47,619 nucleotides of DNA from Acidimicrobiales bacterium (GTDB taxonomy: Bacteria > Actinomycetota > Acidimicrobiia > Acidimicrobiales > SZUA-35), in assembly GCA_020629155.1 (NCBI GenBank), contig JAHDDW010000015.1:1-47619 (forward strand). The letters run 5' to 3'. Under the pieces are notes generated by a model that worked only from the letters and a program-made list of their open reading frames with translations, did no database searches and was not told the origin of the DNA. Positions 37,909 to 41,625 of this stretch are shown here, in pieces. Position numbers and translations under genes: made by a program. Numbering within the stretch: the first letter of the stretch is position 1; each line of letters begins with the position of its first letter.

Positions 37909-38427
37909 ATGACTAAACATATTGTTCTTCTGCGAGCCATCAACCTTGGTGGACGCAATAAAGTAGCGATGGCGCCGCTTCGTGAAATGCTCGAAAAAAA
38001 TGGCTATAGCGATGTCGACACCTATCTGCAAAGCGGTAACGCAGTTGTCGCATCTGAGAAAGAGTCGCAAGAAATAGCGCAAGATATTCGCGCGCTTGTG
38101 AAAAAACATTTCACTTGTGATGTGCCTATTATTGTTCGCAGTGCTGAACAGCTTGCAGCAGCCTGTGCTGCCTACCCCTATGGCGAAGCCAATCCGAAGC
38201 AGTCAGGCATTGTCTTTCTAGCTGCACCTGTTGACGGCGCTATCGATGCTTCCGCATTCGCTCCAGACGAGTGTGTTGTGCACGGCGGCGAAGTTTTTGT
38301 GCATTGTCCAACAGGTTTTAGAGATACGAAACTGACGAACAACTGGGTAGAAAAACAGGCAGGCAGCGACGGAACAAGACGTAACTGGAACACGGTTATA
38401 AAACTTGTCGAAATGGTTAATGGATAA
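37909..38427 (+). CDS. DUF1697 family protein
   Basis: A 172-residue protein covering the full DUF1697 family: HIVLLRAINLGGRNKVAMAPLREMLEKNGYSDVDTYLQSGNAV at the start and the C-terminal WVEKQAG...TRRNWNTVIKLVEM. The function is unknown. Its stop overlaps the start of the next gene (TAATG), so the two are co-translated. Confidence 0.92.
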   Translation: MTKHIVLLRAINLGGRNKVAMAPLREMLEKNGYSDVDTYLQSGNAVVASEKESQEIAQDIRALVKKHFTCDVPIIVRSAEQLAAACAAYPYGEANPKQSGIVFLAAPVDGAIDASAFAPDECVVHGGEVFVHCPTGFRDTKLTNNWVEKQAGSDGTRRNWNTVIKLVEMVNG

Positions 38428-39284
38428 TGACGAAAGTGGAGTTCGTTCGTTTCAAAGCCGCTGACGAGGTTGAGCTGCAAGGTTGGTTACATCTCGCCGA
38501 TGGCGATAGCGCCGTGATACATATTCATGGACATTCAGGTAACGGGTATGAAAATAATTTTCTAGATTACTTGAGCGAAATGTATGTTCAACAGGGCGTA
38601 TCATTTTTTAGTATTGATACACGAGGGCGAGGTGTCATCAGCGACTTTGCGATGGGTTCTGGTTTTAAACACGCAGGCAGTTGCTTCGAGCTATTCGACG
38701 AAAGCGTACATGACATTGAAGGTGCGCTTACATATCTTCGATCTATTGGGAAGAAAACATTCCTTTTGCAAGGGCATTCATTGGGTTGCACAAAGGTTGT
38801 GAACTACATTGTTGCTCAAATGTGTTCAGATATCAGTAGCGTGGTTTTAATCGCGCCGACAGACATGGTTGGGTGGGCTGAAAGCGACCCGCAGCATGAA
38901 ACCTACCTAGTGAAAGCGAAGCATCATATCGCAGCAGGTGAAGGCGAAGAACTTGTCGATGCACAGTGCTGGCCTTTGGATAAGGTTCCAATTTCGGCAC
39001 AAACATATCCAACTATTTGCGAACGTGGCAGTTCGGCCGATATTTATAACAACCGTGATGGAGGTCCACTGCTCGGTCAAGTGTCACTTCCTATGCATAT
39101 CGTGTATGGCGATGCAGATATAGGGATACAACGTATTGATGGCGCAGTGGACAGTTGGCTTGCTCGGGTCAACCCGATAAAGAACCAGAATACAACCATT
39201 TCAATTATTGATGGCGCGCAGCACAGTTTCGCGGGCTGCGAAACTGACCTTGCAGCAGCTATCAAGAAATTTATTGCCGTATAA
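38427..39284 (+). CDS. Alpha/beta hydrolase
   Basis: A 285-residue cytosolic protein. The oxyanion segment is HIHGHSGNGYENN; the nucleophile elbow GHSLG (LLQGHSLGCTKVVNYI) carries the catalytic serine; the acid is probably in IVYGDADIG and the histidine in DGAQHSFAGCE. All triad elements are present. The substrate is unknown. Its last 71 bases, including the region of the catalytic histidine, are duplicated at 40361-40431, beyond the DUF3800 gene. Confidence 0.85.
   Translation: MTKVEFVRFKAADEVELQGWLHLADGDSAVIHIHGHSGNGYENNFLDYLSEMYVQQGVSFFSIDTRGRGVISDFAMGSGFKHAGSCFELFDESVHDIEGALTYLRSIGKKTFLLQGHSLGCTKVVNYIVAQMCSDISSVVLIAPTDMVGWAESDPQHETYLVKAKHHIAAGEGEELVDAQCWPLDKVPISAQTYPTICERGSSADIYNNRDGGPLLGQVSLPMHIVYGDADIGIQRIDGAVDSWLARVNPIKNQNTTISIIDGAQHSFAGCETDLAAAIKKFIAV
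39212..39282. repeat. 71-bp direct repeat, copy 1 (3' end of alpha/beta hydrolase)
   Basis: Identical to 40361-40431 at 69 of 71 positions. It encodes the C-terminus GAQHSFAGCETDLAAAIKKF of the hydrolase. The two copies are 1149 bp apart and bracket the candidate small RNA and the DUF3800 gene. Confidence 0.95.
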
Positions 39285-39385
39285 AGATGTAGTAGATCAG
39301 ACTTGTTCTACTACAAGAAATCTAGAAGTTCTCGTTTCCGTTCTCATCGAGAATGCTAGTATTTAGTTGCGTTTCAAAATTAATT

Positions 39386-39476
39386 GTTAAGCTTTTGCTT
39401 AACCGGTGCGATATAATGTTGTAGAGGGCTGTTCGTAGTTTCCCCCTTTGGGAGGCTCATCGGTCCTCCTTTTCTT
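39386..39476 (+). ncRNA. Candidate small RNA with palindromic promoter and terminator
   Basis: A perfect hairpin GTTAAGC-TTTT-GCTTAAC (39386-39403) overlaps the -35 area of a consensus -10 TATAAT (39412-39417). About 35 bases further on, GGAGG (39451-39455) pairs with CCTCC (39465-39469), followed by TTTTCTTTTT, a Rho-independent terminator. The expected transcript is about 50 nt, beginning near 39424. It has no reading frame and converges on the DUF3800 gene. Confidence 0.5.
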
Positions 39477-39477
39477 T

Positions 39478-40251
39478 TTATGTCGACCTATTAGGCCATG
39501 TTTTTCTGTTGCCTGTTTCATGTCTGATTATGTAATCATCCCATAGTCGTTTGAAGATGCTTTCCAATTTAGTTCTGTCGGCCTTTTCTTTATCAATAGC
39601 TCGGTCATATTTATTTTTGACATATGCGACCATGTCCGCTAACTGAATGCCTGCACTTAGTTGTGAGTCAAGAAAAAAGACGTTGCTAACAATATTGCTT
39701 GTTCGTCTGTTTAAACCATGGCTTGAGCCGACAGGTCCGCCTCCTTTTTTCATCGCAACAACTAAGTTATATGTGTCAGCTTCTTCAGGTTTATTTTCAT
39801 CTGCAACTAAAAGAACTCTTTGTCTTAAAGGGTCATCGGTTTTCTGTCTACCGATCCATGCATCTATATCTTCAAATATATATTGAAATGCGAATTGTTG
39901 AGGTCGATCAGAAGTTTTTGACATAAATTTTTTGTTGATAGTGACATGGAAAACTTTTGCATCACAAGAAGCGAGTACTGCAAAAACCTTTTCAAAAATT
40001 TCTATACGTTTTTCCATTGGAACCTTACGCCATTTTTTCTTGCCATGGATTATCTCACCTGCGTGAAACTCGTCGAGAGTGTCCATAGATAGTTCCTTGC
40101 ACAACTCGTCGCGGTAGTCAAAGATCTGTTTTTCCATTTCATTGACTTGGTTTTCAGCAACTAAAACGGCTGCGATGTAATGGCGAGGTTGTGTAAGATC
40201 ATGAAGGTTGTGGCCTGTGTTGCCACTTTCATCTAAAAAAGCTAAATACAT
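39478..40251 (-). CDS. DUF3800 domain protein
   Basis: A 257-residue protein. The DUF3800 signature YLAFLDESGNTG opens it, and the family's C-terminal QLADMVAYVKNKYDRA is present; the middle has FHAGEI and LLVADENKPE. The family has an RNase H-like fold by prediction (the early Asp and later acidic residues), and often occurs in phage and variable regions; activity unproven. The ATG at 40251 is preferred to a TTG at 40260. It stands alone inside a unit bracketed by 71-bp direct repeats, opposite in direction to both flanking + strand signals. Confidence 0.88.
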   Translation of the reverse strand: MYLAFLDESGNTGHNLHDLTQPRHYIAAVLVAENQVNEMEKQIFDYRDELCKELSMDTLDEFHAGEIIHGKKKWRKVPMEKRIEIFEKVFAVLASCDAKVFHVTINKKFMSKTSDRPQQFAFQYIFEDIDAWIGRQKTDDPLRQRVLLVADENKPEEADTYNLVVAMKKGGGPVGSSHGLNRRTSNIVSNVFFLDSQLSAGIQLADMVAYVKNKYDRAIDKEKADRTKLESIFKRLWDDYIIRHETGNRKTWPNRST

Positions 40252-40360
40252 GATGATCAAGATACATCAAAGTTTTCTAGAATTTGCCCTTGGCTGATAT
40301 TCAAAGATTCAGGCTTGGTTTATTGCCTTGTTGTTGGCCAGTGCCATGTTTCTGCTGGCT

Positions 40361-40431
40361 TGGCGCGCAGCACAGTTTCGCGGGCTGCGAAACTGACCTT
40401 GCAGCAGCTATCAAGAAGTTTATTGCCATAT
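40361..40431. repeat. 71-bp direct repeat, copy 2
   Basis: Second copy of the hydrolase 3' end (first copy at 39212-39282). The two differences are a synonymous AAA/AAG and a GTA/ATA, and the copied frame stays open to its own stop (ends FIAIF). It overlaps the last 12 bases of the minus-strand lipoprotein gene ending at 40420. Confidence 0.95.
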
Positions 40432-41625
40432 TCTGAGAGTGTTTTTGTCGGTGCCAACAGCTAGTGCTGCTTTGTTGCTGTTGTTTTGGATCGCTATGTT
40501 AGTGACACTAGTGCCGTCTGCTTCAACTTCTGCGGCTATCTCTATATCTTCGTCGGTTCGACGTAGCGCTACTAAATGCTGACGGTTTTGTGATAAGACA
40601 ACAACTTCAAGCTCATCGCCGCCTGCGACATCGGCAACGAGCGCCATATCAAGATTTCTGGTACCTATCACATGGCTTGTATATTCTTGCGTGGATGCTT
40701 CGAGTGTTAACGTCGAGTTGTCAAAGCGAAAAAATTCCACAACGCCGCCGATGTGAGGCACCCGAACATCTATAATTTCAAGCTCGCCAGCAGGGCCGAC
40801 TGGGGCGACAGCTAGCTGGTTGCGCCAACGATTGCCTTGCCCTATCGGCTCAGATTCAGCCAGCACAGATCCGTCGAGACGGTAGGCGACAAGTTTCGCG
40901 CCGACTGAAGCGTTGCTTACTGTTACGAGCACGTCAACAACGCCGTCACTATCAACATCGGCAAACATAGGCGAAACACCTTCGATAACATCTGGCGCTG
41001 CGATCTCAATTTTTGTTTTCTCTCCCGAGCAGGTATCGATAACTTGCATTGCTGCTGCTTCAAGAGGATCGCCTAACACGTCATGGTCGTAGCGGTCTGT
41101 TGGGTCAACGAGAGCAGCCAGCAGCGGGCCTTCTTGCACAACAGTTGTATCTGGCAGGGGATTGTCAAACAGATTGTGCTGATCAAAGACGCTTCTCACC
41201 TCAACTTGCCCTGCTTCGTCAAAGAATATTTCTGGTGGGCCGACAACTGCTTGAGCTGGGCCTACGATGCCTTCATCGTCAACCACGACAGCTTCGCCAG
41301 AAGCAAGGGCGACGTACCAAGATTGTGAATTGCCGTAAGGCACAACCCAAACAGGTTCACTTGGCAGCACAACATCAACTGACGTTGCTGCCTCCAAGTC
41401 AAGGCTGCCACTGCTTAGACGGTTGCCGCTGCTCACTACATCAGTTCTAGAAGACATGCGGCTATCAGAACAGTTGTCAGGTCCAGCTACAGTTTGGTCA
41501 GTAGAATTCGTATTGTTTGTTGCTTCAGATGTTGAACTGGCGCTTTTTGGCTCAGCATCATAGGAACAAGCTGAAACTGTTACGAGTAAAGCAAGCAACG
41601 TACTACTAAAAACGTTTCTGATCAT
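40420..41625 (-). CDS. Lipoprotein with beta-propeller-like (FG-GAP/VCBS-type) repeats
   Basis: A 401-residue protein with a lipobox at C20 (LLVTVSAC), then a Ser/Thr/Asn linker. The rest has recurring strands, including ADVDSDGVVDVLVTVSNAS, a calcium-loop pattern found in FG-GAP/VCBS repeats, and ALVADVAGGDELEVVVLSQN. Probably an outer-face lipoprotein that binds a ligand or another envelope protein. It lies 24 bases after the gene at 41650, so the two are likely cotranscribed. Its last codons (RIWQ and stop) come from the repeat copy 2. Confidence 0.75.
   Translation of the reverse strand: MIRNVFSSTLLALLVTVSACSYDAEPKSASSTSEATNNTNSTDQTVAGPDNCSDSRMSSRTDVVSSGNRLSSGSLDLEAATSVDVVLPSEPVWVVPYGNSQSWYVALASGEAVVVDDEGIVGPAQAVVGPPEIFFDEAGQVEVRSVFDQHNLFDNPLPDTTVVQEGPLLAALVDPTDRYDHDVLGDPLEAAAMQVIDTCSGEKTKIEIAAPDVIEGVSPMFADVDSDGVVDVLVTVSNASVGAKLVAYRLDGSVLAESEPIGQGNRWRNQLAVAPVGPAGELEIIDVRVPHIGGVVEFFRFDNSTLTLEASTQEYTSHVIGTRNLDMALVADVAGGDELEVVVLSQNRQHLVALRRTDEDIEIAAEVEADGTSVTNIAIQNNSNKAALAVGTDKNTLRIWQ

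What the first reader, a model, noticed from the sequence alone, without database searches (positions are those of the whole stretch)
39212..40431. DUF3800 unit bracketed by a 71-bp direct repeat of a gene's 3' end
The hydrolase C-terminus is copied at 69 of 71 positions 1149 bp away, and both copies stay open. The unit between holds only a DUF3800 gene and a candidate small RNA. The layout resembles an element that integrates at a gene end and restores it, but has no recombinase. It may be a minimal mobile cargo or defence unit moved by homologous recombination or by a helper.
Basis: partly seen in the sequence, partly recalled or inferred. Interest (0 to 1): 0.7.

Follow-up and report, generated by a model that had tools for sequence, protein, structure and literature searches.

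The report
Nuclease-RNA module inserted at gene ends
A one-kilobase unit made of a predicted RNA-cutting protein and its own small structured RNA appears to have inserted at the end of a bacterial gene, copying that gene end; relatives of the unit sit at the ends of other genes, some at the edge of anti-virus gene islands, and at two of those genes related genomes show the empty site.

Summary
The repeat is real: 39212-39282 and 40361-40431, 69 of 71 positions, spacing 1149. Between the copies lie a DUF3800 gene with a predicted RNase HII-like fold and a structured RNA transcribed towards it. The RNA is conserved with compensatory changes, lies beside all 13 intact close relatives of this DUF3800 examined and matches no Rfam family. 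In 14 of 19 loci a gene could be assigned beyond the RNA; all 14 (8 different genes) end facing it on its strand. The window's own empty site could not be tested. Relatives show insertion: at prcA, G369 carries about 7.5 kb bracketed by a 76-bp, 93% copy of the gene end, while 20 of 29 other loci held are empty; at rlmB, 10 of 22 genomes have 18-48 bp where G339 has 7.3 kb, without a long repeat. How it moves is unknown: no recombinase appeared among the island proteins scanned, and clear gene-end repeats occur in only 3 of 19 loci. Most likely a nuclease-RNA pair moved by recombination it does not encode; self-mobility is not excluded.

The parts
38427..39284 (+). alpha/beta hydrolase gene whose 3' end is the insertion target
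   Evidence: ORF; Pfam DUF1749/Hydrolase_4
39212..39282 (+). repeat copy 1: present 3' end of the hydrolase gene
40361..40431 (+). repeat copy 2: displaced copy of the hydrolase 3' end; also holds the end of the convergent gene
39224..39246 (.). 9-bp inverted repeat with 5-nt centre inside repeat copy 1 (same in copy 2, 40373-40395)
   Evidence: meaning not tested
39288..39315 (+). hairpin just behind the hydrolase stop
   Evidence: fold
39412..39417 (+). TATAAT, possible -10 element of the RNA
   Evidence: read; GATATAAT also lies before the RNA of L059; inferred
39421..39487 (+). structured RNA, convergent with DUF3800, new DUF3800-associated RNA family
   Evidence: model R1 match 31 bits; the window is one of the 16 rows the model was built from
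39470..39479 (+). T-run at the RNA 3' end, overlapping the DUF3800 stop codon
39478..40251 (-). DUF3800 gene, 257 aa, predicted RNase HII-like fold
39381..40296 (.). extent of the conserved module (about 45 bp before the DUF3800 start to about 40 bp before the RNA), transferred from relatives
   Evidence: homology between loci with different target genes stops at these distances; inferred for the window
40420..41625 (-). convergent gene whose last codons lie in repeat copy 2
   Evidence: no Pfam family

Best explanation
The segment is an inserted two-gene module: an RNase HII-like protein (DUF3800) and a small structured RNA transcribed towards it. It went in at the 3' end of the hydrolase gene; a copy of the last 71 bp stays joined to the hydrolase, so the gene remains complete (285 aa; 286 aa in the rejoined site), and the displaced copy still completes the convergent gene. 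Shown here: the repeat, the RNA's conservation and strand, the constancy of the pair, its gene-end position in relatives, and empty sites at two other target genes. Inferred: that the window's unit arose in the same way. Inferred function: protein and RNA form a nuclease-RNA pair, most likely of an addiction or anti-phage kind, that travels alone or at the gene-proximal edge of defence islands. Inferred mobility: it is moved by recombination it does not encode, either a site-specific recombinase acting in trans on the gene end or recombination of a circle that carries the gene end.
For: Repeat. RNA: 200 of 208 pair cells form on the modelled strand against 146 of 208 on the other, 55 G-U against 1 C-A; 6 of 13 pairs change on both sides and none of 500 shuffles reaches the covariation score. 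All 13 intact close relatives have the RNA behind the stop. In 397 order genomes R1 finds 13: 11 have the close DUF3800 or a fragment of it (all 11 are rows of the model, so they match by construction), G344 keeps the RNA beside what reads as a DUF3800 C-terminal remnant, G082 is marginal. Gene 3' end on the RNA strand beyond the RNA in 14 of 14 assignable loci, 8 genes. Module edges coincide between loci with different targets. prcA: G369 insertion with a 76-bp 93% repeat, 20 of 29 other loci held empty; G354 has a 63-bp 81% repeat and a second RNA copy. rlmB: 18 bp in G355, G182 and G231 against 7.3 kb in G339. The module diverges more than its flanks (78.1% against prcA 88.4%; 73-77% against 92.7% at tRNA-Pro). 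The tree joins the G272 tRNA-Pro module (N-terminal piece only) to the G070 P-ATPase module (95/91) and places G182 tRNA-Pro outside (fork 89/86, below the tool's star mark).
Against: Only 3 of 19 loci show a clear gene-end repeat. The rlmB insertion has none; the last ~28 bp of the gene differ instead. prcA also hosts a defence-type island in which I found no DUF3800-RNA pair (G289), so the site may be a general hotspot. In G354 the outer flank of the island was not found in the 17 kb held, so its outer edge is open. In DUF3800 loci at large, repeats bracketing the gene are hardly enriched: at E<1e-5 4 of 64 (window included) against 3 of 299 control ORFs, those 3 all in one repetitive locus; at E<1e-2 5 of 64 against 22 of 299, no enrichment. 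No empty site for the window. No functional data.
Confidence: 0.6

Rival explanations
1. DUF3800 and its RNA are themselves the integration machinery: an RNase H-fold enzyme that uses the RNA to recombine at gene 3' ends, as IS110 recombinases use a bridge RNA.
For: The pair is the part common to the insertions, while cargo and target genes vary. It sits at the gene-proximal edge, where an integrase gene usually lies (recalled). A unit holding nothing else is bracketed by a gene-end repeat. No recombinase among the island proteins scanned. The second RNA next to the displaced prcA end in G354 reads as successive insertions.
Against: Best structural matches are RNase HII/H2, not a recombinase. 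The RNA shows no more match to its own target end than to others (7.5 against 7.3 nt). Pfam shows no further domain in DUF3800. rlmB has no long repeat.
Confidence: 0.17
2. Gene 3' ends such as prcA, rlmB and tRNA-Pro are general island hotspots filled by ordinary homologous exchange; DUF3800-RNA is only a frequent passenger and the repeats are by-products.
For: The G289 prcA island has a diverged prcA copy of about 440 bp but no pair found; G207, G400, G308 and G416 carry another gene at the same rlmB point.
Against: The pair lies directly at the gene end, with the RNA facing it, in 14 of 14 assignable loci, and the module is more diverged than its surroundings.
Confidence: 0.22
3. The window repeat is a local duplication of the hydrolase end unrelated to mobility.
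For: No empty site for this locus; 71 bp is short.
Against: The same arrangement with empty sites at prcA; the DNA between the copies is not duplicated.
Confidence: 0.05

Closest known systems
DUF3800-associated RNA motifs (Rfam DUF3800-I RF02969, DUF3800-IX RF02968 and others)
   Same: A structured RNA next to a DUF3800 gene; two Rfam entries named in PMC11701678 (passages); association of DUF3800 with putative ncRNAs stated in PMC10910872 (passages). That there are eleven such motifs is recalled
   Different: No match near a family's gathering score in the window region at E up to 10, none at the RNA in 13 related loci at E up to 1; gene-end position and target duplication were not in the passages I read. 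The original motif paper (recalled as doi 10.1093/nar/gkx699) is not held
RNase HII / RNase H2
   Same: Fold: Foldseek E 5e-5, VIA Z 11.9, rmsd 3.8 over 172 residues; N-terminal DESG resembles the RNase HII DEAG motif (recalled)
   Different: Low identity (best rows 6-16%); linked to an RNA gene and to mobile regions
Integrative islands at tRNA or protein-gene 3' ends (recalled)
   Same: Gene-end target, restored end, direct repeat, empty sites
   Different: No integrase gene in the window unit nor among the proteins scanned of three prcA islands; the unit can be about 1 kb
IS110 elements with bridge RNA (recalled)
   Same: RNase H-fold protein with an adjacent structured RNA
   Different: No guide-like match found; long gene-end repeat in the window
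Type III toxin-antitoxin pairs (recalled)
   Same: Nuclease gene with a small structured RNA
   Different: Fold differs; here the RNA is convergent with the protein gene and not an upstream tandem-repeat RNA

Membership tests
DUF3800 (PF12686) | match above the curated score | tested here: met
   57.2 bits against 21
Rfam DUF3800 RNA families | match to a covariance model | tested here: not met
   no match at gathering score in the window and none to a DUF3800 family at E up to 1 in 13 related loci
Site-specific integrative element | empty sites with one repeat copy | tested here: met
   for the prcA relatives only; not testable for the window
Site-specific integrative element | encodes a tyrosine or serine recombinase | tested here: not met
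   in the window unit the other listed ORFs lie inside DUF3800; none among the 11 island proteins scanned
IS110 / bridge-RNA element | RNA guides complementary to target | tested here: inconclusive
   no excess match to own target in 11 loci
IS110 / bridge-RNA element | DEDD RuvC-like plus Tnp domain | tested here: inconclusive
   only the DUF3800 Pfam match; structure searches list RNase H-type enzymes first
Type III toxin-antitoxin | toxicity relieved by the RNA | not testable with these tools
   needs expression tests
RNase HII | fold and active-site residues | tested here: inconclusive
   fold matches; residue correspondence not checked by superposition; a profile search of PDB sequences finds no RNase HII

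The most novel reading that the evidence does not exclude
The RNase HII-like DUF3800 protein and its structured RNA form a new kind of RNA-dependent integration system that places DNA, from a 1-kb minimal unit to defence islands of several kilobases, at the 3' ends of genes while restoring those ends.
Probability: 0.14. Interest if true: 0.92.

Novelty: new variant of a known kind. Interest (0 to 1): 0.6.

Why it matters
DUF3800 genes with nearby RNAs are known but, in the passages I read, unexplained. This family gives them an anatomy (convergent RNA, predicted RNase HII fold), a recurrent place (gene 3' ends, in part at edges of defence islands) and natural before-and-after pairs, so both the function of the pair and the movement of islands in which no integrase is seen become testable.

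Tried and rejected
RNA as a guide to the target: no excess match. General claim that DUF3800 genes are bracketed by repeats: first scan at E<1e-5 5 of 59 against 8 of 269 controls, second scan 4 of 64 against 3 of 299, and no enrichment at E<1e-2; too weak. Of nine members of one other clade added later (L194-L202), two (L199, L201) have long direct repeats at larger distance. The tRNA-Pro repeat of G182 (23 bp, 87%, E 0.007) lies between a neighbouring restriction-type gene and the module and may be chance; not counted. Viral contigs: no relative of the window protein or of the L091 protein; nine distant ones with the alignment. Phages and plasmids: only distant DUF3800s at 25-28%. An R1 match in Brevundimonas L070 (17 bits, E 0.34) was inspected and not accepted. 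The G604 match was not followed. The G426 difference at prcA is a small gene, not a module. Alignment A2 was misframed in some rows and replaced by A3. RNA kept where DUF3800 is broken or lost (six cases: G272, G385, G414, G344, G417, second copy in G354) against no intact DUF3800 without RNA (13 looked at) fits an antitoxin-like RNA, but also neutral decay of a target nine times longer; not used as proof. Three plasmid neighbourhoods of distant DUF3800s were looked at for annotation only.

Full report
Observation. The repeat is as described: 39212-39282 and 40361-40431, 69 of 71 positions, direct, 1149 bp apart. The hydrolase C-terminal end occurs nowhere else in the own genome at the sensitivity used. 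Copy 2 also contains the stop codon of the convergent gene 40420-41625. Rejoining the flanks at one copy gives a 286-aa hydrolase ending ...FIAIF and a 17-bp overlap with the convergent gene, so both genes are complete without the unit. ARAGORN finds no tRNA in the window.

The unit. DUF3800 (39478-40251, minus strand) matches PF12686 and no PADLOC model. The AlphaFold model built on nine sequences (mean pLDDT 85, pTM 0.88) resembles RNase HII/H2: Foldseek E 5e-5, VIA Z 11.9, rmsd 3.8 over 172 residues. A sequence-profile search of PDB chains finds no such relative, so this rests on fold alone. PMC10910872 (passages only) also reports an RNase H fold with a catalytic rearrangement for a DUF3800 domain and mentions associated ncRNAs; [quoted passage not shown] Region 39285-39480 folds better than all 200 shuffles.

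The RNA is real. A search of 397 genomes of the order (named records of the same contigs read Acidimicrobiia or Acidimicrobiales) with the window DUF3800 gave 20 genomes at E up to 1e-6; 11 besides the own form a close group at E below 1e-27 with 34-41% identity. Directly behind the DUF3800 stop of these genes lies the same RNA core. In an alignment of 16 copies with 13 pairs, 200 of 208 cells pair on the strand opposite DUF3800 and 146 of 208 on the other; 55 cells are G-U, one is C-A; 6 pairs have changes on both sides and none of 500 shuffles reaches the covariation score (the number of further pair types is not above the shuffles, 398 of 500 reach it). I looked at 13 relatives with an open DUF3800 frame over the full length (window, L045, L052-L061, L063); all 13 have the RNA, in G339 and G253 with a doubled hairpin. 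Model R1 finds 13 of 397 order genomes. Eleven of these, the own genome included, have the close DUF3800 or a fragment of it, but these eleven are rows of the model. Not rows of the model: G344, with the RNA beside what reads as the last residues of a DUF3800, G082 (marginal), and, in a search of 64 loci, G417 (85.9 bits), G339 and G253 (28.6-29.1 bits). So the RNA was hardly ever found away from a DUF3800 or its remains; the second RNA of G354 is the exception. In 396 genomes drawn from the phylum only the own genome and one weak match appear. Rfam has no matching family.

Where the pair sits. I collected 19 loci: the window, L052-L064, L045, L073, L121, L177 and L189; in L073, L189, L121, L062 and L064 the gene is truncated, reduced, deleted or broken, and L177 ends at the contig start. 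In 14 the gene beyond the RNA could be assigned, and in all 14 its 3' end faces the RNA, on the RNA strand: hydrolase (window), P-type ATPase (L053), CoA-transferase (L054), proteasome subunit prcA (L055, L056, L177), tRNA-Pro (L057, L062, L064, L121), CoxE-like protein (L058), short-chain dehydrogenase (L060), SpoU/rlmB-type methylase (L063, L045). That is 8 different genes; loci that share a target may be related by descent (L057 and L064 are 96% identical). In L052, L059, L061, L073 and L189 I could not assign a gene. The distance from RNA to gene end is 50-153 nt in the 11 loci measured.

Module edges. Homology between units at different targets stops 41-45 bp before the DUF3800 start and about 40 bp before the RNA (G070 against G182, G272 and G385); the two prcA units agree from -73 to 33 bp before the RNA, while their cargo differs. 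This defines a module of roughly 0.9-1.0 kb. It is more diverged than its surroundings (78.1% against prcA 88.4%; 73-77% against 92.7% at tRNA-Pro). The tree groups G272 (tRNA-Pro; N-terminal piece only) with G070 (P-ATPase) at 95/91, with G182 (tRNA-Pro) outside at 89/86, which is below the tool's star mark.

Insertions. prcA: in G369 the prcA end is repeated (76 bp, 93%) on both sides of about 7.5 kb. The search found prcA matches in 47 other genomes of the family; 29 of these were held as loci. Of the 29, 20 have the flanking DNA joined to prcA with 105-233 bp between the two probes, against 7750 bp in G369; 9 are filled or undecided, G354 among them. In G354 the prcA end is repeated at 81% over 63 bp, and the displaced copy is itself preceded by a second RNA at similar spacing, which I read as two successive insertions; the outer flank was not found in the 17 kb held, so the outer edge there is open. 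rlmB: of 22 genomes of the genus, 10 have 18-48 bp (G355, G182 and G231 18; G419 25; G290, G152 and G417 27; G418 29; G272 46; G324 48) where G339 has 7.3 kb. G207, G400, G308 and G416 have another gene there, so relative to these the insert is about 5.7 kb; G415 has a different 1.2-kb insert; the remaining five (G070, G119, G370, G385, G420) gave pieces I did not resolve, and G253 carries the pair like G339. There is no long rlmB repeat; instead the last ~28 bp of the gene differ. The prcA islands carry defence-type genes: a type ISP restriction system and an exonuclease (G369), a helicase and a PDC-S11 protein (G354). No recombinase was found among 11 proteins scanned from three prcA islands; not every ORF was scanned.

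Against. A clear gene-end repeat is seen in 3 of 19 loci (window, G354, G369). The prcA site also holds an island in which I found no pair (G289). Across DUF3800 genes in general the enrichment of bracketing repeats is weak or absent depending on the cut-off, although single cases are striking: L091 (149 bp, 97%, the end of the preceding gene) and L085 (451 bp, 98%).

Reading. The window most likely holds the smallest clear member of a mobile nuclease-RNA module that enters gene 3' ends. Insertion is shown for relatives and inferred for the window. Function as an addiction or defence pair is inferred from the predicted nuclease fold, the partner RNA and the defence cargo. Movement by functions supplied from outside is the cautious choice; that the pair itself drives integration is not excluded. 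In the held library DUF3800 occurs in 11 papers (ten seen as a listing; passages read in four) and PF12686 in one (listing); none of what I saw describes gene-end insertion.

Noticed in passing
L051:824-1561 (own genome, contig 10): A second, distant DUF3800 gene in the own genome; a 36-bp, 92% inverted repeat brackets it.
   Followed up: partly
L172 (G289): Defence-type island (DpdE/DrmD-like helicase) at the prcA 3' end, bracketed by a diverged prcA copy, with no DUF3800-RNA pair found.
   Followed up: partly
L062:10570-11880: DUF3800 of G272 is interrupted by about 1.3 kb that holds an ALIL pseudoknot (RF01497), suggesting an IS3-type element (recalled).
   Followed up: no
L091:9393-10825: A different DUF3800 clade: a 149-bp, 97% repeat of the preceding gene's 3' end brackets DUF3800; four of eight plasmid relatives fetched have an annotated helix-turn-helix gene just upstream (L195, L196, L197, L202).
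   Followed up: partly
L085:9372-11617: A 451-bp, 98% direct repeat including a gene 3' end brackets a DUF3800 gene; the locus is repetitive elsewhere too.
   Followed up: no
L233-L236 (G207, G400, G308, G416): An ATPase-type gene at the same point of rlmB, preceded by short TTAGT/ACTAA palindromes.
   Followed up: no
L053 and L057, upstream of DUF3800: The same large restriction-type gene precedes the module in G070 and G182 although the target genes differ.
   Followed up: partly
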